A stretch of 64,000 bases of DNA from Planctomycetia bacterium (GTDB lineage: Bacteria; Planctomycetota; Planctomycetia; Pirellulales; PNKZ01): NCBI GenBank assembly GCA_021413845.1, contig JAIOPP010000096.1:1-64000 (forward strand), written 5' to 3'. Under the pieces are notes generated by a model. It was given only the letters and a program-made list of their open reading frames with translations, ran no database searches and was not told the origin of the DNA. Position numbers and translations under genes: made by a program. Positions 181-64,000 of the stretch are shown piece after piece; the stretch's first letter is position 1, and the number at the start of each line of letters is the position of its first letter.

Positions 181-456
181 ATGCCTAATCGGATTCTTCG
201 ACGGTCTGCGCTTCGTTGGTTTGCGGCGTTCTTGATCCTCGCTCAGGGGGTGGTTCCCGCTCGGCTCTTGGCCGACCCGTCGGGGGGCGTCGTGGCGGCC
301 GGTAGCGCGGCGATTCACGTCGCGCCCAACCACGTCGAAGTGACGCAGCAAAGCGATCGCGCGGTCATCAACTGGAACAGCTTCTCCGTCGGCGCCGGGC
401 AAGCGGTGAACTTCCACTTGCCGGGGGCCAACTCGCGCGGGGAGCCGCGCTTGTAA
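181..456 (+). pseudogene. N-terminal fragment of a filamentous-haemagglutinin-type (TPS domain) adhesin
   Basis: An open frame of 91 codons starts with a basic, hydrophobic signal peptide (about residues 1-32, ending near LLADP). It runs into the opening of a two-partner-secretion haemagglutination domain: the segments IHVAPNHVEVTQQSDRAVIN, WNSFSVGAGQAVNF and LPGANS are typical of that fold. Family members are usually many hundreds to thousands of residues long and are exported to the cell surface. Here homology stops at about base 435 and the frame ends at 456. From about 430 onward the opposite strand encodes a Cas4 fragment, so the adhesin gene was cut by a rearrangement. It is almost certainly non-functional, although a short exported peptide could still be made. 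The family call rests on motif recognition only. Confidence 0.6.
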
Positions 457-794
457 TCGACGGGCACAACCACGCCGTCGTCGGCTTCGATCAGATCCAT
501 CTTCGCGATCAGCCCATGGCGCTCGCTCGACAGCGTCACGCTTCGGGCATGGATCGCATCTTCGGGCGAAAGCTCTTCGGCCGGCGCGAGCTCACCCTTG
601 CCGCTATCGACCTTCGTATGCCGGAGCGCACCTTCGACCGTTTCGCGATTGTGTTTGAAGACCCCTTCGACATGTTCGTAGAAGTAAAGCCGCGGACAAT
701 AGACGAACTCGTTGAGCATGCGGGCCGGAAGGTAGTCCCGAGCGTCCTCGTCGGGCATCGAGATCGGCAAAGCGGTCGACATGGGGATACCCAT
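430..794 (-). pseudogene. cas4: N-terminal fragment of Cas4 (probably from a Cas4-Cas1 fusion)
   Basis: Read on the minus strand from an ATG at 794 (an alternative ATG is at 782), the protein shows the Cas4 opening NEFVYCPRLYFYEHVEGVF, the motif-I His in GALRHTKVD, IHARSVTLSSERHGLIAKMD with the motif-II Asp, and VVPVDYKRG with the motif-III Asp-x-Lys. It resembles the Cas4 half of Cas4-Cas1 fusions from type I-G (formerly I-U) CRISPR loci. After SPREL, at about base 432, the frame enters antisense adhesin DNA and homology is lost. The C-terminal iron-sulfur cysteines of Cas4 and all of Cas1 are missing. No array or other cas gene is visible nearby. This is the dead relic of an adaptation module. 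Cas4 identity is fairly secure; the subtype is an inference. Confidence 0.7.
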
Positions 795-1165
795 GGAATG
801 TCGATCCCCTCGGAAGAGTGTGATGCCAGAACATAACGGTTGCCGGGCCGAACGCAAGTTTTGCGGCAGCAATCGCTGGGAAAGCGGCTCATCTCCGCCG
901 CCGTATCGAGTGCGGAAGTAACCTAGCGGCAGGCTTGGACAGATCGAGTCACACGTGCCATTTGTTCAGTGATGTAAACACACGTGGCTATTCGCCTTTA
1001 ATGCATGGCGAGGTGCGCAAGCTCCACGAGGAACGCATCAAGCGACCCGTGATTCTCGACGACGTCAAACCAACAACGAAAATGCGATACGAAGACGTTG
1101 CTGAACGAGCTGACCACGTTCAAGCGATGATCGATGGTTCGTCGAGGTCGAGCACTTGAGAGACT
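795..1165. other. Non-coding or decayed interval between cas4 relic and integrase relic
   Basis: No convincing intact gene is visible. A 74-codon open frame at 935-1159 (plus strand) encodes a charged peptide containing HGEVRKLHEERIKRP and TKMRYEDVAERADHVQ. It does not match a family I can name and could be a scrap of a longer protein. The stretch lies between two gene fragments and looks like part of the same decayed accessory segment. Confidence 0.4.
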
Positions 1166-55093: not shown

Positions 55094-55278
55094 TACCGAC
55101 TCTCCGCGCTGAGACCCACGCTAGTTTCGAAACATCGCCCAGCATAACACGACGCGACGAGGTTATCACACCCTTGAAACGCGTCGGCTCTGCGTCTACC
55201 GGCCGCGATTCATGGCGCGCTACTTAACTTGGCGCGAATCATTGCTTCTTTCCGGGCGACTAGTCGGGTCCGGAGTTA
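55094..55278. other. Junction region between chromosome backbone and accessory segment
   Basis: 185 bases between the CxxCH-protein gene and the IS630-family end. No gene was recognised. Any remaining genes of the phage-like module that once lay downstream of the terminase are missing. Confidence 0.4.
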
Positions 55279-56079
55279 GAGCATTTTTCCCGAGGTCGTA
55301 GCGTAGCCGGAGTTGCGGAAGTAGTTGCGGCATTCGGTCGGAGCGAAGCGGTCGAGAAGTTTGCCGAGGAGCGACCAGAGACCGTCGACGGTGCGCTCTT
55401 TCGCGCTGCGGACGAGCCATTTGAGCTTGGCGAACGCTTGCCGCGCACCGACCGCTTCGATCGCCGCGCGGACGCCTGCGACTTTGTGGACCGAGAGGTT
55501 GTCCATCACGACGACATCGCCGGCGTGTAACGTCGGCGCGAGTTGCTGCTTGACGTAAGCCAAGAACGTCGGACCGTCGAGCGCGCCATCCACGACCATC
55601 GGCGCCGTGAGGCCGCTCGAGCGGAGCGCGGCGACGAACGTCGTCGACTTCCAATGTCCGTGCGGCGTCTTGTCGACCAAGCGTTCGCTCCGCGGCGCTC
55701 GGCCGCGCAAACGCGTCATGTTCGTCGCGGTCGAGGTCTCGTCGAGGAACACGTACCGCTCGACGGCGAGGCTCGTCATTTCGGCTTGCCACCGCGCACG
55801 TTCTTCGCGGACGTCGGGCCGGTCTTGCTCCGCGGCATGGACGACTTTTTTTTGAACGACAGCCGGAGGTCGTCGAGCGCGCGCCAGAGTGTCGTTACGC
55901 TGACGGCGACCGGCAACTCGGTCCGAAGTTCTTCCAGCGTCGCATCGGGTTGCTTGCGAACCAACGACCGCAGGAGTTCGGAGTGCTCCGCCAAGACCTT
56001 CTTCGCCGACTTCGGCCGCGACGAGCGGGGCGTCGTCTCGCCCGTCTCCCGACGCCGCTGCTTCAGGCGTCGAAGCCAC
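55276..56079 (-). CDS. IS630-family transposase, DDE catalytic part (orfB, by frameshift)
   Basis: The catalytic half follows a frameshift within an A8 run (55846-55853). It reads on from the first frame as KVVHAAEQDRPDVREERARW. The DDE residues lie in AVERYVFLDETSTATNMT, DVVVMDNLSVHKVAG and KERTVDGLWSLLGKLL. The genuine part begins at about 55850; the frame extends upstream to 56079 without homology. The C-terminus ends at FRNSGYATTSGKML with the stop TAA formed by the TA target duplication. It cuts and pastes the element at TA sites. Confidence 0.85.
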   Translation of the reverse strand: MASTPEAAASGDGRDDAPLVAAEVGEEGLGGALRTPAVVGSQATRCDAGRTSDRVAGRRQRNDTLARARRPPAVVQKKVVHAAEQDRPDVREERARWQAEMTSLAVERYVFLDETSTATNMTRLRGRAPRSERLVDKTPHGHWKSTTFVAALRSSGLTAPMVVDGALDGPTFLAYVKQQLAPTLHAGDVVVMDNLSVHKVAGVRAAIEAVGARQAFAKLKWLVRSAKERTVDGLWSLLGKLLDRFAPTECRNYFRNSGYATTSGKML

Positions 56080-56256
56080 GATTCACTGACGCGACACTTC
56101 GTCGCCGCCACCCGCGTCGACATTCCGCCGTCGCAATCTTCCAAGATCCGCGAACGCAGATCCCGAGAATAAGCATCCATGACAAGTCCTCCCGTGACTC
56201 GCCCCGTCTTACCTCATTCGCCGCAATCGCGCTAGACCCTCCGGAAAAATGCTCTA
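55277..56256. mobile_element. IS630-family insertion sequence
   Basis: A 976-base element (55279-56254) is flanked by a duplicated TA target (55277-55278 and 56255-56256), as expected for the IS630/Tc1/mariner superfamily. The terminal inverted repeats start GAGCATTTTTCC and end with its complement GGAAAAATGCTC. The next bases match further with one mismatch. Two overlapping reading frames encode the transposase. The TA copies form the last bases of both the transposase stop codon (TAA) and the stop codon of the neighbouring terminase gene. The copy looks intact and recent. Confidence 0.92.
55776..56180 (-). CDS. IS630-family transposase, helix-turn-helix part (orfA)
   Basis: 134 residues from the ATG at 56180. 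Paired HTH segments typical of IS630 are visible: MDAYSRDLRSRILEDCDGGM, then STRVAATKCRVSESWLRRLK, ending in VSVTTLWRALDDLRLSFKKK. From there the usual continuation (LHAAEQDRP-like) is in the other frame, so a -1 or +1 shift on the AAAAAAAA run joins it to the catalytic part. Residues after about 110 (SSMPRSKTGP) are out-of-frame readthrough. It provides inverted-repeat binding. Confidence 0.85.
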   Translation of the reverse strand: MDAYSRDLRSRILEDCDGGMSTRVAATKCRVSESWLRRLKQRRRETGETTPRSSRPKSAKKVLAEHSELLRSLVRKQPDATLEELRTELPVAVSVTTLWRALDDLRLSFKKKSSMPRSKTGPTSAKNVRGGKPK

Positions 56257-57777
56257 GCCGCCGTACTGGAAATGGGAATGCCACATCCGCAGCGCCAACA
56301 CTTGCACGTAATTCAAGGAATGGAGAGCATCGTCGTGTTGGTGTTCAGGACAAACGTAACGGACCGTTCGCAGGTAGGGATCGAACTCGGCCGTTTCGCA
56401 GGTGAATTGTTGGAGAAATTTTCCACAGTCGCCCACTTTCGGAAAAAGCGTCATCCGCTTCTTGATCCGCGTGAATAAACCGCCGATCGTGCCGCTGCGA
56501 TCGACGATCCATTTATATAGCACCCCATCTTGCTTCGGTTCTTGTTCGGTCGAGGAATACAGGATCGCGTAAATGGGAATTCGCGACTCGACTTTAGAGA
56601 AGAGCACGCGGTTGTAAACGCCGCCGTTCCCGCCGCCGTCGGCCGCGATGAACCGTACACGAAATTCGCGGCAGAGTTTGGCGACGGCGTCGGACACGAC
56701 CTCCGAATCCTCTTGGGCGCGCAATTGCTCGAAGCGCACGACGACGAAGTTCTTATCTTCCCGGATATAACCGATCGTCACGACGGTCGCGGAATGGACG
56801 CCTCCGCTCCAATCGATGCCGGCCAGCAAGCGGTCGCGATATTCGCGCGGGACATCCGCGAGTTTCGTCGCCATCGCTTGCTTCGTGCAGCAGGCCTCGA
56901 TCTCTTCGCGCGTGATGAGATGATCGCCGAGCTGCGTCGGCAGACCGAGACATTCGTTCTTGAAGCGGGCCGCATCGTAGGTCGCCTGCCGCAATAGAAT
57001 GTCATCGAACTTCAGCCACGGGACCATCAGGTGATTGATCCAAAATCCCTCACCCCAGCGTGATGCGGGATTTCGGGCCACCCAGCGTCCGTCGCGGGCC
57101 TGGATCGGTCCCCGGCAGTTGGGACAAACGAGTCCCGCAGGACCGATCAATTTATCGTCCGGAATGAAACTTAACTTGCAGGTATGGCAGGGAATGTGCC
57201 ATTCGTTGCCGGTCGATTGCTGAAAAATCGACTCCACATGGTTGTCTTCCCCCTTAGGGGTCGCCGTAAGGATGACGCGCGGCCGAGTGGAGTGCGATAA
57301 GGTCTCCTGGAGAACAGGCAGCGTTTGGTCGGCGATATCCTGGAACTCGTCGATGAACAACAGGTCCGCGCTTAATCCCCGGACGGGGTCGGCTGAATGG
57401 AACGCGGCGCGAATATACACCTCGGATCCGTTTCGAAAGCGCATGTGCTTGACCTGCGGGCGACGCCCTCGATTCCCTAATAAGAGGCGACTGACGACGG
57501 GACTTCCCTCGATCGCCGGAATGAGTCGCGACTTACTGAAGACGGCGGCCTGCTCCTGGCGGGGACAAACGAAAATCATGCTCGTTCCCGGGTTCGCAAT
57601 CGCTTCGTAAATGATCCGATTACAAAGTAGCGTTGATTTTTCGACCTGTCGGCTACACCGCAGGATGAGATGGCGGTCGATCGCCCCATAGACGCTCTTC
57701 AAGTACTCCCGGCCGGCGAACGAGATCGGCTGATTCCGCAAACGAATAAAATTTTTGCAGAACTTAAGAAGTCCCAT
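56254..57777 (-). CDS. Phage terminase large subunit (GpA-like)
   Basis: 507 residues from the ATG at 57777 (GGGGAA precedes it; a longer frame from 57891 is possible). The ATPase domain has RHLILRCSRQVEKSTLLCNR, where the usual QxGK[ST] Walker A reads QVEKST, then Walker B LLFIDEFQDIADQ, and coupling motif VILTATPKGEDN. A CxxC pair lies in HIPCHTCKLSF and VCPNCRGP. The nuclease domain has LAGIDWSGGVHSATVVTIGY, FIAADGGGNGGVYNRVLF and HQHDDALHSLNYV with metal-site acidic residues. It would package DNA into a capsid, but no portal, protease or capsid gene lies downstream. The stop codon TAG was created from TAA by the IS630 insertion, with no loss of protein. Confidence 0.88.
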   Translation of the reverse strand: MGLLKFCKNFIRLRNQPISFAGREYLKSVYGAIDRHLILRCSRQVEKSTLLCNRIIYEAIANPGTSMIFVCPRQEQAAVFSKSRLIPAIEGSPVVSRLLLGNRGRRPQVKHMRFRNGSEVYIRAAFHSADPVRGLSADLLFIDEFQDIADQTLPVLQETLSHSTRPRVILTATPKGEDNHVESIFQQSTGNEWHIPCHTCKLSFIPDDKLIGPAGLVCPNCRGPIQARDGRWVARNPASRWGEGFWINHLMVPWLKFDDILLRQATYDAARFKNECLGLPTQLGDHLITREEIEACCTKQAMATKLADVPREYRDRLLAGIDWSGGVHSATVVTIGYIREDKNFVVVRFEQLRAQEDSEVVSDAVAKLCREFRVRFIAADGGGNGGVYNRVLFSKVESRIPIYAILYSSTEQEPKQDGVLYKWIVDRSGTIGGLFTRIKKRMTLFPKVGDCGKFLQQFTCETAEFDPYLRTVRYVCPEHQHDDALHSLNYVQVLALRMWHSHFQYGG

Positions 57778-58273
57778 GGGAATTCCCCATGGCGCGCGCC
57801 ACGATCGCAGCGAGTTGTTCTTCCGAAAGAAATGCCGCCAAGTCATTCGCCATTTCGGGATGTCGTGCGACCATTTCGACCAGGGCTTCATCGGCGGTCC
57901 CTGAATGGCGCTCGGTCCCGCTTCGCTGACGGTAGTGCTGCAGGAGCGCTGTATAGCTGGCGTGCATCGTTCGCGCCTGTCCGATGGACACCCTGCCGAG
58001 CAAGACGAGTGGCGGTATGCCGCTCAAAGCGGCTAGACATTCCTCCTCGCTCAAGATTCGCGGCACGTGCGGACGACGCGCGTCGCGGCGGTAGTTTTCG
58101 GATCCATGATCGCCCGGCGGATCGCTCCGATGCGATTGTTGCCGGCGCGACTCCTGTTGACGGTCGGTTTGCGGCTGCGCGGCCTCGGCAGCGTTCCGGT
58201 CGGTGCCGCCGTGGTTCTCGGACCGCTCGTTCGCGGCCTGGTCGTCCGGACTTGGTAAAAGGGGAAATGTCAT
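57764..58273 (-). CDS. Hypothetical protein in the terminase module
   Basis: 169 residues; its end overlaps the terminase start by 14 bases, indicating coupling. The N-terminal 70 residues are Arg/Gln/Ser/Asp-rich and disordered (RNAAEAAQPQTDRQQESRRQ). The C-terminal part is helical with RILSEEECLAALSGIPPLVL and ARTMHASYTALLQHYRQRSG, then MVARHPEMANDLAAFLSEEQ. Position and helical content allow a terminase small-subunit or accessory DNA-recognition role, but I cannot assign a family. Confidence 0.65.
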   Translation of the reverse strand: MTFPLLPSPDDQAANERSENHGGTDRNAAEAAQPQTDRQQESRRQQSHRSDPPGDHGSENYRRDARRPHVPRILSEEECLAALSGIPPLVLLGRVSIGQARTMHASYTALLQHYRQRSGTERHSGTADEALVEMVARHPEMANDLAAFLSEEQLAAIVARAMGNSHGTS

Positions 58274-59613: not shown

Positions 59614-60291
59614 ATGACGCAAGAACCACATAAAGCCACCCCTTTCGAAGGTGTTGAGAGCGATCTGGCGGATCTCCCCCGTAAGCGGCTGGAAAAGCTG
59701 CTGGAAGCCATGGAAGAGCGGGGCATTTCGCAAGCCGACGTCGCAAAACGGGTAGCGGTTCCCGCGCCCTATCTCTCTGACGTGAAGATCGGGCGGCGTC
59801 CGCTGTCGGAGTTATTTGCGCGGCGGTTCTTTGAGGAATTCGGCGTCGACCACCAGTGGCTTTTAGGCCAACAAGGCTCGATGGAGGTCCCGCCGTTCGG
59901 TAGCTCCTCGCTCGGCGACGGGCGACGCGTCTGGCTGCCGGCCTTCGCACATCCGATTTCGGGGGATCCCACAGGCTGGAGCAACTGGGATGGGACGTGC
60001 GTGGAGCTCGCCGGGATGGCCGCGATACGCGTCCTGTTCGCCGAGCGACCGTACATCCTCCGATTCGGCGTCGACGATCGACGGGGGCGACTCCGGCGCG
60101 GCGACTTGGTGCTCATTTCGCAGGCGATCGACGCCTCGGCCGAGATCCAGGTTGTGAAAGCAGCGAGGAAGATGTTCTTAGCGCGCCGTGCACCGGATGG
60201 GACCTGGGAGCGCTTGAGCACCGACGGAACGATCGACGTCGAACCGGTCGTGATAGGACACTGCGTCGGCGTCATATGGAGCGCGTTGTAA
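59614..60291 (+). CDS. Phage-type repressor: HTH plus degenerate S24-like domain
   Basis: 225 residues. An XRE-type HTH lies at about 24-70 (RLEKLLEAMEERGISQADVA, then KRVAVPAPYLSDVKIGRRPL). The C-terminal half has a LexA/CI peptidase-like layout: a beta-rich region with PYILRFGVDDRRGRLRRGDL, VLISQAIDASAEIQVVKAAR. In the place of the usual G-D-S-M nucleophile serine motif the text reads VDDRR, so self-cleavage is doubtful. The final IGHCVGVIWSAL strand matches the family end. It is divergent from the terminase module and likely controls it. Confidence 0.75.
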   Translation: MTQEPHKATPFEGVESDLADLPRKRLEKLLEAMEERGISQADVAKRVAVPAPYLSDVKIGRRPLSELFARRFFEEFGVDHQWLLGQQGSMEVPPFGSSSLGDGRRVWLPAFAHPISGDPTGWSNWDGTCVELAGMAAIRVLFAERPYILRFGVDDRRGRLRRGDLVLISQAIDASAEIQVVKAARKMFLARRAPDGTWERLSTDGTIDVEPVVIGHCVGVIWSAL

Positions 60292-61259: not shown

Positions 61260-61619
61260 ATGTCCCACATCGTTCAGATTCAGACCGAGGTGCGCGATCC
61301 GGTCGCCCTGACGACGGCCTGTGCTCGACTCGGACTACCTACGCCGATCCATCGGACCGTCATACTCTACCAAGCCGAAGCGACGGGCTTAGCAGTGGAG
61401 TTGCCGCGTTGGCGATACCCAGTCGTGTGTCAGACGGAGACCGGTCAACTTCGCTACGACAACTTCGGAGGTCGTTGGGGAGATCGGACCCAACTCGATC
61501 GGCTGCTTCAGATTTACGCGGTGGAAAAAGCTAAATCGGCGGCGCGGAAGCAGGGCTTCGGCGTGAGCGAGCGGACGCTCGAGGACGGGAGTATTTTAAT
61601 TCGGGTTCAGGCCGCTTGA
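61260..61619 (+). CDS. Ycf35-like protein (DUF1257)
   Basis: 119 residues behind AAGGAG (11 bases before the ATG). It opens MSHIVQIQTEVRDPVALTTA, matching the DUF1257/Ycf35 family of cyanobacteria and red-algal plastids, then VELPRWRYPVVCQTETGQLR and YDNFGGRWGDRTQLDRLLQI with YAVEKAKSAARKQGF. Function is unknown in all lineages. In several genomes it occurs next to DUF2997 and Ycf46-like AAA genes; here both follow, with wide gaps. The call rests on motif recognition. Confidence 0.8.
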   Translation: MSHIVQIQTEVRDPVALTTACARLGLPTPIHRTVILYQAEATGLAVELPRWRYPVVCQTETGQLRYDNFGGRWGDRTQLDRLLQIYAVEKAKSAARKQGFGVSERTLEDGSILIRVQAA

Positions 61620-61962
61620 GCTTGCGCGTCCGCTGCGTTCGATCTTCGCATGCGATTTTTATAAGCCTTGCGAAGCTGAGGCGATTCGTTCTCGGCGCTC
61701 GGCTTCGGCCTGGACGACGATCCCATGACCGTCTTTCACCTTTCGCCTGCGGTCGAAATGAAATGCGTGAGTCCGAATACCGTAAGGTTAAGGAAGACGG
61801 CACACAACGTCATGTCGATTTAAGCACCATGAACGTCGATGCGGAAGCGGCCCCGCAGCGAAGGCCGGTTGCCGACGCGTCCATGAAATCCTCAGAACGT
61901 AGTCGCGGCTTGAATTAGTTCGCTTTCACGGCAAGCACCTCCTTCATCTTTCGGAGAACGAC
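61620..61962. other. 343-base spacer between the Ycf35-like and DUF2997 genes
   Basis: No supported gene. A 100-codon Arg-rich frame (61616-61918) overlaps the preceding stop and has no family resemblance. Such a wide gap inside an otherwise co-directional cassette is unusual for an operon. Confidence 0.4.
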
Positions 61963-62181
61963 ATGCAAGACCGCATAACGGGTAACGCTGTATTTAAGAT
62001 CGTGGAAGTGGTCGTATCGCCAACGGGAGAGATCGTCATTCGGACCAAAGGATTCGTCGGTACGGCCTGCCGAGACGGGAGCCGGTTTCTCGAAGAAGCT
62101 CTCGGACGATGTCAGAACGAGCGGCTTACCACCGAATCGCACCAAGCTCTTCCCGTAGACGGACTATGGGTGAATCGCTGA
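61963..62181 (+). CDS. DUF2997-family small protein
   Basis: 72 residues behind CGGAGA. The core VFKIVEVVVSPTGEIVIRTK, GFVGTACRDGSRFLEEALGR matches the DUF2997 pattern (a beta hairpin, then xTxGFxGxxCxxAxxxLExALG). The conserved Cys is C38. The last 18 residues are variable. Function is unknown. DUF2997 proteins commonly sit next to DUF1257 genes, as here. Confidence 0.78.
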   Translation: MQDRITGNAVFKIVEVVVSPTGEIVIRTKGFVGTACRDGSRFLEEALGRCQNERLTTESHQALPVDGLWVNR

Positions 62182-62918
62182 CGAACGGTGCGTTAGCGAA
62201 AATCGTCGATCTCTTTTCGACTATCCGTATGAACGCGCCATTTCATCGTCATCAGGCGGCACTCGCTCAGCCGAGCTTTACACGCGGCAGCGTGACGGAT
62301 TCCTACGCGTGAAGTGATTCCGCGGCAAAAAATCCCGGCCGCCGGCACCGCGCAGTCGACGCCCCCTTGCTCACGAACCGTACTCCAGCCCCATTCTGCG
62401 AATCCGTCCTCCGCGGTAATGCGGCACGGGGGCGACGTTAAATCCATCAGCACGCAAGCGGATTGTCGAACGTCGATTCTTTTTATCACGCGGCAAGCGG
62501 CGACGCGGGATCGACGACGCCGGGTTTTCGTCACGGTAGTTGAAGTCCATTGTTTTGTGCCGTATCGACTGCGGCCCAAACGATGCAATCTGTTGTTCAA
62601 AAAGAGAGAGCCGTTTTGGAGCTGCTAGGTAGGCTACCACGCGCGACGGCTCGTGCTCATCGGCCTGAACGCCCATCACCAAGGGGACCCAATCCCGCTG
62701 TCGAGCGTTCGCTCGTGAGCGTCCGACCTTGCGCTCCCCGTAGGGTTCGCGGTCCAATCGCCAAAGCCACGCGACCATTCACAAGGCTTAGTATGCAGGG
62801 ACCCACCACCCGAAATATCGGCCGAAGAAGTCGTCGCGCCGGAGACGGCGACTTACATAAGCACCTTTTTCCCATCCGTCCTCGGCGTCCGGTTGCCGAC
62901 ACACCTCGGGAGCATTCC
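62182..62918. other. 737-base stretch with no convincing gene
   Basis: Several 70-135 codon frames exist on both strands, but none has family resemblance and good initiation signals. It separates the DUF2997 gene from the AAA+ ATPase gene. Confidence 0.4.
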
Positions 62919-64000
62919 ATGTCTTTGGCTCAGAGCTTGTCCGAATACATCCGTGCCTGTTTTACCGGGGTCTGGGTCGAAAGTCATGAACAGCAAGATG
63001 CACTTACCGAAATCGCCGGCCTCTGTCGCCGCGAACGGTGGCGACTCGCAACCTGGGACATCGATCGCGGACTCGACGTCGGCGATGACGGATCGTCGAT
63101 CTCTGCCGGACAGGATCCGCTCGCGGCCGTTCAAGCACTGAACCGGATGGCGTCGGCCGACGGCACCGCGATCTTGGTACTGCAGAACTTCCATCGGTTC
63201 ATGCAATCCGCCGAGATCGTGCAAGCACTTTTGCGACAGATCATTAACGGCAAGCAGCATCGGACCTTCGTCGTGGTCCTAGCTCCGCTGGTCCAGATAC
63301 CGCTCGAACTCGAAAAGTTGTTCGTCGTCGTGTCGCATGAGCTTCCCGGCCGCGAGCAGTTGTTAGAGATCGCCCGCGGGATCGCGACGGAAGCCGGTGA
63401 GTTACCGGAAGGTGCCGCACTCGACACCATGCTCGATTCGGCGGCGGGACTCACGCGTTACGAAGCGGAAGGGGCGTTCAGCCTAGCACTGGTTCGATGC
63501 GGTCGTATTCAAGCGGATGCGATCTGGGATTTGAAGGCCGGCATGCTGAAGAAGAGCGGCTTAATGTCGCTGCATCGCAACAGCGACGACTTTGAGAGTT
63601 TGGGCGGCCTCTCTGCGCTCAAAGCCTTCTGCAAACGCGCGCTGCTGCAGCCGGGACGAGGTCATCCACTCAAGCGTCCCCGGGGCGTGCTCTTGCTCTC
63701 ACCGCCGGGATGTGGCAAGTCGCAGTTCTGCAAAGCACTCGGCAAGGAAACCGGGCGGCCGGTGTTGATCCTCGACGTCGGGACGCTGATGGGCTCGCTC
63801 GTCGGTCAAACGGAAGAGCGGACGCGGCAGGCACTGCGAATCATCGAGGCCATGGCCCCGTGCGTGCTGATGGTCGACGAGGTCGAGAAGGCGTTCGCCG
63901 GGCTCGGTACGTCAGGCTCCGCCGATAGCGGCGTCTCGGCGCGGATGTTCGGTGCGTTCCTCAGCTGGCTCAACGACCACGAGTCCGACGTCTTCACGGT
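62919..64000 (+). CDS. Ycf46-like AAA+ ATPase (3' end beyond window)
   Basis: The frame is open from the ATG at 62919 (GGGAG upstream) to the window edge: 360 codons and two bases, with no stop seen. The N-terminal domain has ILVLQNFHRFMQSAEIVQAL then APLVQIPLELEKLFVVVSHE LPG, as in the Ycf46 family. The AAA+ domain has Walker A LLLSPPGCGKSQFCKALGKE, a sensor-region GSLVGQTEERTRQALRIIEA, and Walker B CVLMVDEVEKAFAG. Only the start of the lid region is inside the window. Ycf46 proteins are known from cyanobacteria and plastids, linked there to photosynthetic regulation, but occur widely in non-photosynthetic bacteria. Its placement with the Ycf35-like and DUF2997 genes suggests a functional set. 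Confidence 0.85.
   Translation, partial: MSLAQSLSEYIRACFTGVWVESHEQQDALTEIAGLCRRERWRLATWDIDRGLDVGDDGSSISAGQDPLAAVQALNRMASADGTAILVLQNFHRFMQSAEIVQALLRQIINGKQHRTFVVVLAPLVQIPLELEKLFVVVSHELPGREQLLEIARGIATEAGELPEGAALDTMLDSAAGLTRYEAEGAFSLALVRCGRIQADAIWDLKAGMLKKSGLMSLHRNSDDFESLGGLSALKAFCKRALLQPGRGHPLKRPRGVLLLSPPGCGKSQFCKALGKETGRPVLILDVGTLMGSLVGQTEERTRQALRIIEAMAPCVLMVDEVEKAFAGLGTSGSADSGVSARMFGAFLSWLNDHESDVFT

What the first reader, a model, noticed from the sequence alone, without database searches (positions are those of the whole stretch)
61260..64000. Ycf35-like, DUF2997 and Ycf46-like AAA+ cassette in accessory DNA of a non-photosynthetic bacterium
Seen: three co-directional genes with good ribosome-binding sites, a DUF1257 (Ycf35-like) protein, a DUF2997 protein and an AAA+ ATPase with Ycf46-like N-terminal text. 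Known: Ycf35 and Ycf46 are conserved in cyanobacteria and plastids, and their biochemical role is unclear. Inference: the three form a functional module, perhaps an ATPase with two small client or adaptor proteins, carried on a mobile segment. The wide gaps (343 and 737 bases) are odd and may hide decayed or unrecognised parts.
Basis: partly seen in the sequence, partly recalled or inferred. Interest (0 to 1): 0.78.

Follow-up and report, generated by a model that had tools for sequence, protein, structure and literature searches.

The report
Mobile AAA+ module with swappable arms
The three genes are the front end of a conserved six-gene ATPase module found across Planctomycetota, large phages and plasmids; in many planctomycetes it is followed by either a bacterial ubiquitin-like tagging system or a DNA clamp-and-nuclease set, which suggests a little-described mobile, probably anti-phage, machine.

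Summary
The genes at 61260-61619 (DUF1257-like), 61963-62181 (DUF2997) and 62919-64409 (AAA+ ATPase) are the 5' half of a conserved, ordered core: DUF1257, DUF2997, AAA+, a DUF3150-like protein, an 81-aa protein and a ~70-aa protein. Beyond base 64000 the contig carries the rest. Order was kept in 63 of 63 planctomycete loci. The core is followed by one of two largely exclusive arms: a ubiquitin-like set (ThiS-like Ubl, E2-RING-like protein, JAB, ThiF/E1) or a DNA set (DnaN-like clamp, c26, PD-(D/E)XK nuclease). The arm switched at least 14 times on the core's tree. The core also sits on phage-like contigs, some with a terminase, and on plasmids. Its planctomycete flanks are rich in DISARM, type I restriction and integrase genes. 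The window copy is interrupted and partly decayed, with no complete arm, but its ATPase and DUF3150-like genes are under purifying selection. A second, complete DNA-type copy lies elsewhere in the genome. Best reading: a mobile AAA+ conflict module, probably anti-phage (about 0.45); main rival, an element-maintenance core. No function was tested. No paper in the held library describes the module.

The parts
61260..61619 (+). DUF1257 (Ycf35)-like protein, 119 aa; first gene of the core
   Evidence: PF06868 16.6 bits, below the cut-off of 22.2; 53-66% identical to most module relatives; AlphaFold2 model pLDDT 90.4
61963..62181 (+). DUF2997 protein, 72 aa; second gene of the core
   Evidence: PF11211 45.9 bits against cut-off 24.1
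62919..64000 (+). AAA+ ATPase, 5' part; the gene ends at contig base 64409 (496 aa), Walker A PPGCGKS and Walker B LMVDE intact. The rest of the core lies beyond the window on the same contig (same numbering): DUF3150-like c2 66159-67115, c4 67115-67360, c11 about 67453-67674, frame-broken TOPRIM-like gene about 67853-68463, c26 69229-69693, all on the + strand; an antisense FemAB/GNAT gene at 64500-65753 interrupts it
   Evidence: PF00004 72.8 bits; phrog_8638 E=1.7e-61; continuation read in L001; dN/dS about 0.09 against the second copy
61620..61962 (.). abnormal spacer between DUF1257 and DUF2997 (343 bp)
   Evidence: largest of 68 loci, median of profile-match distances -7 bp; no other copy in the genome
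62182..62918 (.). spacer between DUF2997 and AAA (737 bp); relatives often have a TOPRIM-like gene here, none recognised in this copy
56254..57891 (-). phage terminase large subunit upstream (context, not core)
   Evidence: phrog_675 E=1.6e-57; about 32% identical over 412 aa to terminases placed the same way in viral contigs with the core
59614..60291 (+). CI-like repressor with N-terminal HTH (context, not core)
   Evidence: PF01381 26.9 bits; phrog_8, phrog_4 repressors

Best explanation
The three genes encode the ATPase end of a mobile AAA+ protein-remodelling module. Shown: DUF1257, DUF2997, AAA+, DUF3150-like, c4 and c11 are a conserved ordered core; in planctomycete islands the core is followed by one of two exchangeable arms, a ubiquitin-like conjugation set or a clamp/nuclease set; the islands carry integrases and known defence systems; the core also travels on phages and plasmids. 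Inferred: DUF1257 and DUF2997 are small adaptors of the ATPase, and the long DUF3150-like protein is its partner or substrate-holding subunit. On an infection signal the complex would remodel a target, and the arm would act on it, by tagging and untagging proteins (E1, E2-RING, JAB) or by acting on DNA at a sliding clamp with the PD-(D/E)XK nuclease. I take the most likely net role in the host islands to be anti-phage or inter-element conflict. The window copy keeps an ATPase under selection but has an interrupted gene order, a frameshifted TOPRIM gene and no complete arm, so it may work only with the complete DNA-type copy elsewhere in the genome, or be decaying.
For: Order conserved in 63/63 loci; c4 in 42/43 and c11 in 38/43 downstream. 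Arms: of 43 loci with enough downstream DNA, 20 have the Ub set and 18 have some DNA-arm gene, only 3 have both; Fisher p=0.0016. Arm state needs at least 14 changes on the core tree (shuffled mean 22), with supported sister loci carrying different arms. Flanks: 78 proteins around 19 loci hit 243 PADLOC families (DrmD x4, type I methylase x3-4) against 40 for a size-matched control from the same genomes, none of the listed ones with more than one member; Pfam shows 6 integrases, HsdM, HsdS, Mrr, GmrSD. Ub set: Ubl ThiS 26.6 bits over cut-off, ThiF 94.7 bits, Prok-JAB 18.6 bits (below cut-off) with JAMM residues visible; E2 domain with invariant HPH and Cys, model residues 94-226 matching E2/UEV folds at Z 6.3-6.9. 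Clamp: DnaN E=8e-5; nuclease: PDDEXK_1 109 bits. Selection: AAA dN/dS about 0.09, c2 0.07. Second complete DNA-type copy on contigs C32 and C54, which share an identical 141-bp end overlap.
Against: No function has been tested. A defence-island neighbourhood also fits cargo-carrying elements. The core without arms is common in phage-like contigs, where a host-defence role is odd. No PADLOC system model covers the module. PADLOC counts are redundant (several models per protein), so the ratio of families overstates the enrichment; the member counts are small. Eight of 43 loci have neither arm. In the window copy the frame of the TOPRIM gene is broken and the gaps are abnormal.
Confidence: 0.45

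Rival explanations
1. The core is a maintenance or replication-recombination module of integrative elements, prophages and plasmids. The clamp, TOPRIM-like protein and nuclease serve the element's own DNA, and the restriction systems nearby are separate cargo.
For: The core is on about 40 viral contigs, some with a terminase ~4 kb away in divergent orientation, and on Manganitrophus plasmids. In a Rhizobium phage the trio lies upstream of replicative helicase and DNA polymerase I genes. Integrases and recombinases are frequent in the flanks. The window has a terminase and repressor beside the core.
Against: The ubiquitin-like arm has no obvious role in replication. Host copies form almost one clade apart from the viral ones (3 changes), so they are not simply recent prophages. 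Integrase position relative to the core is not fixed.
Confidence: 0.33
2. The module is a housekeeping assembly or iron-sulphur/cofactor machine like the cyanobacterial DUF2997-ycf35-ferredoxin operon.
For: DUF2997, ycf35 and fed7 form a tricistronic operon in Synechocystis (PMC4284462). Distant planctomycetes have DUF1257-DUF2997 with the AAA gene in single-copy loci near non-mobile-looking genes.
Against: No ferredoxin was recognised in the module families clustered here. Up to seven copies per genome, mobile flanks and exchangeable arms do not look like housekeeping.
Confidence: 0.07
3. The window copy itself is a decaying remnant with no function, whatever the intact module does (not exclusive with the other readings).
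For: DUF1257-DUF2997 gap of 343 bp is the largest of 68 loci; TOPRIM gene frameshifted; no clamp, nuclease or Ub genes recognised beside it; antisense acyltransferase inserted.
Against: DUF1257, DUF2997, AAA, DUF3150-like and c4 frames are all open, and the AAA and DUF3150-like genes have dN/dS below 0.1 against the second copy; that ratio could partly reflect gene conversion or the second copy's own selection.
Confidence: 0.3

Closest known systems
FtsH-ternary conflict systems with tri-ligase Ubl conjugation (Kaur et al. 2020, PMC7159879)
   Same: AAA+ ATPase plus a complete E1, E2, RING, JAB and Ubl set, extra alpha-helical proteins, conflict context, presence in planctomycetes
   Different: Those systems are built on a MoxR-vWA pair plus a double FtsH AAA protein, with the Ubl fused to E2 and EAD1 and with caspase-like effectors. 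Here there is one AAA+ protein with DUF1257, DUF2997 and a DUF3150-like protein, a separate Ubl, an E2-like domain fused to the RING-like zinc region, and an alternative clamp/nuclease arm
Bacterial E1-E2-JAB operons (Iyer et al. 2006, PMC1779556; Bil and CBASS types)
   Same: E1-like ThiF, E2-like, JAB and Ubl in mobile operons
   Different: No AAA, DUF1257 or planctomycete mention in the 2006 paper; the E1 here is 219 aa, stand-alone, and far below the NCBIfam cut-offs of PRTRC and 6A-MBL, with only a partial weak match to BilD
Cyanobacterial DUF2997-ycf35-fed7 operon (PMC4284462)
   Same: DUF2997 next to DUF1257
   Different: Ferredoxin instead of AAA+ and DUF3150-like partners; opposite gene order
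Core-like gene sets on Manganitrophus plasmids (CP114559) and a Geminocystis plasmid (AP014825)
   Same: AAA, DUF1257, DUF2997, DUF3150 and a small protein; or RloB, DUF1257, DUF2997, AAA, DUF4007
   Different: Annotated only as domains of unknown function; no arm of either kind recognised there
IetAS / SgiAT AAA+-subtilisin pairs
   Same: Same broad AAA clade: IetA model E=4.6e-15 over the ATPase domain
   Different: No match outside the ATPase domain; no subtilisin partner recognised

Membership tests
DUF1257 / Ycf35 (PF06868) | score over the Pfam gathering cut-off | tested here: not met
   16.6 bits against 22.2; called DUF1257-like only
DUF1257 / Ycf35 (PF06868) | adjacent to DUF2997 | tested here: met
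   window 61260 and 61963; 17 of 17 PF06868 hits in 199 planctomycete genomes lie next to a DUF2997 hit
DUF2997 (PF11211) | score over the Pfam gathering cut-off | tested here: met
   45.9 bits against 24.1
AAA+ ATPase (PF00004) | domain score and Walker motifs | tested here: met
   72.8 bits against 21.2; PPGCGKS and LMVDE read in the sequence
Ycf46 | orthology to plastid/cyanobacterial chromosomal Ycf46, N-terminal domain included | not testable with these tools
   no Ycf46 model among the hits and no chromosomal cyanobacterial genome on hand; homologues at 31-35% identity over most of the protein on cyanobacterial plasmids
FtsH-ternary / MoxR-vWA conflict systems | MoxR AAA plus vWA protein in the operon | tested here: inconclusive
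   no vWA or MoxR recognised among the clustered module families, but only the commonest 25 Pfam families of the flanks were shown
PRTRC system | ThiF protein over the TIGR03736 cut-off | tested here: not met
   35.4 bits against 144.75 for the E1 of relative L041; the window copy has no E1
Bil / CBASS-type Ub systems | E1 of the Bil or CBASS type | tested here: not met
   BilD 21 bits, partial; E1-E2 fusion models match only their E1 part
IetAS | IetA-like ATPase over its whole length with IetS subtilisin partner | tested here: not met
   match limited to residues 253-429; no protease gene recognised beside it
Ubiquitin-conjugating enzyme fold (arm of relatives) | E2-like fold with catalytic Cys | tested here: inconclusive
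   model residues 94-226 match E2/UEV chains, Z 6.3-6.9, rmsd about 3.5, ~120 residues; invariant HPH and Cys; Foldseek best E=0.096 only
DnaN sliding clamp (arm of relatives) | profile match to solved beta clamps | tested here: met
   7rzm E=8e-5, over profile residues 188-254 only

The most novel reading that the evidence does not exclude
A widespread, undescribed class of modular conflict system in which one AAA+ core, shared with phages, is repeatedly re-coupled to either ubiquitin-like conjugation or a sliding clamp with nuclease, so that protein tagging and DNA attack are interchangeable outputs of the same ATPase sensor.
Probability: 0.35. Interest if true: 0.85.

Novelty: new variant of a known kind. 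Interest (0 to 1): 0.62.

Why it matters
Ycf35/DUF1257 and DUF2997 have had no known role and are known mainly from cyanobacteria and plastids. Placing them in a mobile AAA+ module with a fixed set of partners gives concrete, testable hypotheses. If the module is a defence system, it would be one in which the effector arm (ubiquitin-like tagging or clamp plus nuclease) has been swapped many times on a fixed core, a natural experiment on how a AAA+ machine couples to Ub-like conjugation in bacteria.

Tried and rejected
tblastn of the window DUF1257 protein against annotated phages found nothing, although HMMs later found it in Rhizobium phage L338C. PDB profile searches with DUF1257 and with the DUF3150-like protein found no relative; fold search with the DUF1257 model gave no confident solved fold and one viral model match (A0A7S5REL3, TM 0.73). 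No further copy of the gap DNA in the genome. No Ubl, E2-RING or module-type E1 found in this genome. The idea that the second copy (contig C32) lacks the DUF3150-like gene was dropped: it continues on contig C54. The 2006 Ub-systems paper and the held papers on DUF1257 and Ycf46 do not describe the module; Burroughs et al. 2011 on prokaryotic Ub systems, cited by PMC7159879, is not in the held library as far as I could find and could not be checked.

Full report
Check of the observation. DUF2997 and AAA pass their Pfam cut-offs; the DUF1257 match is below its cut-off at 16.6 against 22.2 bits. The window is the first 64000 bases of an 84426-base contig of a 7.08-Mb draft genome, so the region beyond the edge could be read. 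The AAA gene ends at 64409 and encodes 496 aa with intact Walker motifs.

The module is larger than three genes. I drew 40 stretches around DUF2997 hits from a phylum-wide search (44 of 294 genomes positive, up to seven copies in one genome), clustered their proteins and found fixed neighbours: AAA, DUF1257, a ~320-aa protein (c2), an 81-aa protein (c4) and a ~70-aa protein (c11). A profile of c2 against 84,980 species genomes gave 177 loci; the best 80 are labelled as planctomycetes almost throughout, one record naming only a bacterium. Among them the order DUF1257, DUF2997, AAA, c2, c4, c11 held in all 63 loci that could be judged. With at least 7 kb upstream, AAA was present in 35 of 39, DUF2997 in 34 and DUF1257 in 34. 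This set was chosen by c2; the set chosen by DUF2997 alone gives AAA in 37 of 40 and DUF1257 in 27 of 40. c2 homologues on plasmids are annotated DUF3150. The window contig has c2 at 66159-67115, c4 at 67115-67360, c11 near 67453-67674, a frame-broken TOPRIM-like gene and c26 at 69229-69693.

Two exchangeable arms. Downstream of c11, relatives carry either (a) a ThiS-like Ubl with a near-terminal conserved Gly, a protein with an E2-like domain followed by a Cys-rich zinc region, a JAB peptidase and a ThiF/E1, or (b) a DnaN-like clamp, c26 and a PD-(D/E)XK nuclease. Of 43 loci with enough sequence, 20 have the Ub set, and 18 have at least one DNA-arm gene; only three have both, and eight have neither (Fisher p=0.0016). 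On the c2 tree the arm changes at least 14 times (shuffled mean 22), and well-supported sister loci differ in arm, e.g. L120/L141 and L158/L162. The E2 reading rests on invariant HPH and Cys and on a model whose residues 94-226 match E2/UEV chains at Z 6.3-6.9; Foldseek alone was weak, so this is good but not conclusive.

Where it travels. Scans of viral contigs with c2 and DUF1257 profiles gave 35 and 13 loci (a few contigs shared), most with the five genes DUF1257, DUF2997, AAA, c2 and c4, in two main orders. Several carry a terminase of family phrog_675 in divergent orientation about 4 kb from DUF1257. The window has a terminase of the same family in the same relative position, about 32% identical; no planctomycete locus fetched has it. 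Host and viral copies are separate on the c2 tree except for one viral contig that holds the full Ub form and one host sequence. Plasmids of Manganitrophus and of the cyanobacterium Geminocystis carry the trio, the latter beside RloB-family and DUF4007 genes; a Rhizobium phage has it just upstream of replication genes.

Neighbourhood. Seventy-eight flank proteins from 19 loci matched 243 PADLOC families at E below 1e-15, led by DrmD (4 proteins) and type I methylases (3-4); a size-matched control of 78 proteins from the same genomes matched 40, those listed each with a single protein and mostly generic kinase or sigma-54 models. PADLOC holds many models per protein, so the counts of proteins, not of families, are the safer measure. 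Pfam adds six integrases, three recombinases, IS91 transposases, HsdS, Mrr and GmrSD.

State of this genome's copies. The window copy has the widest DUF1257-DUF2997 gap of 68 loci, a broken TOPRIM-like gene, an antisense FemAB/GNAT gene between AAA and c2, and no recognised clamp, nuclease or Ub genes. A second copy spans contigs C32 and C54, which share an identical 141-base end overlap: DUF1257 and DUF2997 (overlapping), AAA, c2, c4, c11, clamp, c26, nuclease, with antisense guest genes in three spacers. Between the copies AAA has 88% amino-acid identity and dN/dS about 0.09, c2 96% and 0.07, while DUF1257 has 59% and DUF2997 42% identity. The ATPase and its c2 partner are therefore constrained or exchanged between copies, and the two small proteins have diverged.

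Mechanism and rivals. What is shown is anatomy, conservation and context. That the proteins form one machine, that DUF1257 and DUF2997 are adaptors, and that the output is defence are inferences. Ub-like conjugation with AAA+ remodelling is an established theme in predicted bacterial conflict systems (PMC7159879), which makes defence the leading reading at about 0.45. An element-maintenance role (0.33) is favoured by the phage and plasmid copies and by the clamp and nuclease. A cofactor role like that suggested by the ferredoxin neighbour in the cyanobacterial operon is unlikely (0.07).

Novelty. No paper in the held library that names DUF1257, DUF2997, DUF3150 or Ycf46 was found to describe this module (titles and abstracts, with targeted reading of a few), but that library is partial and the 2011 paper on prokaryotic Ub systems was not available. 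I therefore file it as a new variant of a known kind (mobile AAA+/Ub-like conflict systems), not as categorically new.

Noticed in passing
window 56254-57891 and viral loci L185-L202, L219: Terminase of family phrog_675 lies divergent to the DUF1257 module in the window and in several viral contigs; intervening genes differ. Suggests a prophage remnant of a related phage, or a coincidence.
   Followed up: partly
contig base 64500-65753 (L001 4500-5753); L058 13083-13991; L244 4453-8649 and 12073-13656: Antisense guest genes (acyltransferase, NAD epimerase, peptidase-like, large kinase-like protein) sit in the spacers of both copies of the module in this genome; relatives often carry an HTH/c10 pair in the AAA-c2 spacer.
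   Followed up: partly
L245 (C61) and L246 (C1) of the same genome: Two more c11-clamp pairs occur without the AAA core, each preceded by a similar protein of about 250-340 aa that I could not assign.
   Followed up: no
L048, L049, L059, L064: In other planctomycetes DUF2997 and AAA lie near PilT-like, radical-SAM-like and zinc-ribbon proteins, apparently a non-mobile version of the pair.
   Followed up: no
L060, L066: DUF2997-AAA loci of a distant planctomycete family have their own ThiF-like protein and a helical protein, suggesting a separate link to E1-like enzymes.
   Followed up: no
L236 (CP052535) and 711 plasmid records: Homologues of the AAA protein are frequent on conjugative enterobacterial plasmids; in the one inspected a VWA-domain gene lies two genes upstream.
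   Followed up: no
window 55276-56180: IS630-type transposase split over two frames, at the left edge of the accessory segment.
   Followed up: partly
contig base 72344-77633 (L001 12344-17633): DnaE-type polymerase followed by two further genes that look like an ImuB/ImuA mutagenesis cassette marks the right edge of the accessory segment.
   Followed up: no
window 315-872: Possible Cas4-like fragment near the left end of the window.
   Followed up: no
13 of 39 loci, e.g. L113 3883, L134 5412: A lipoprotein-like, coiled-coil-like gene (c14) often precedes DUF1257.
   Followed up: no
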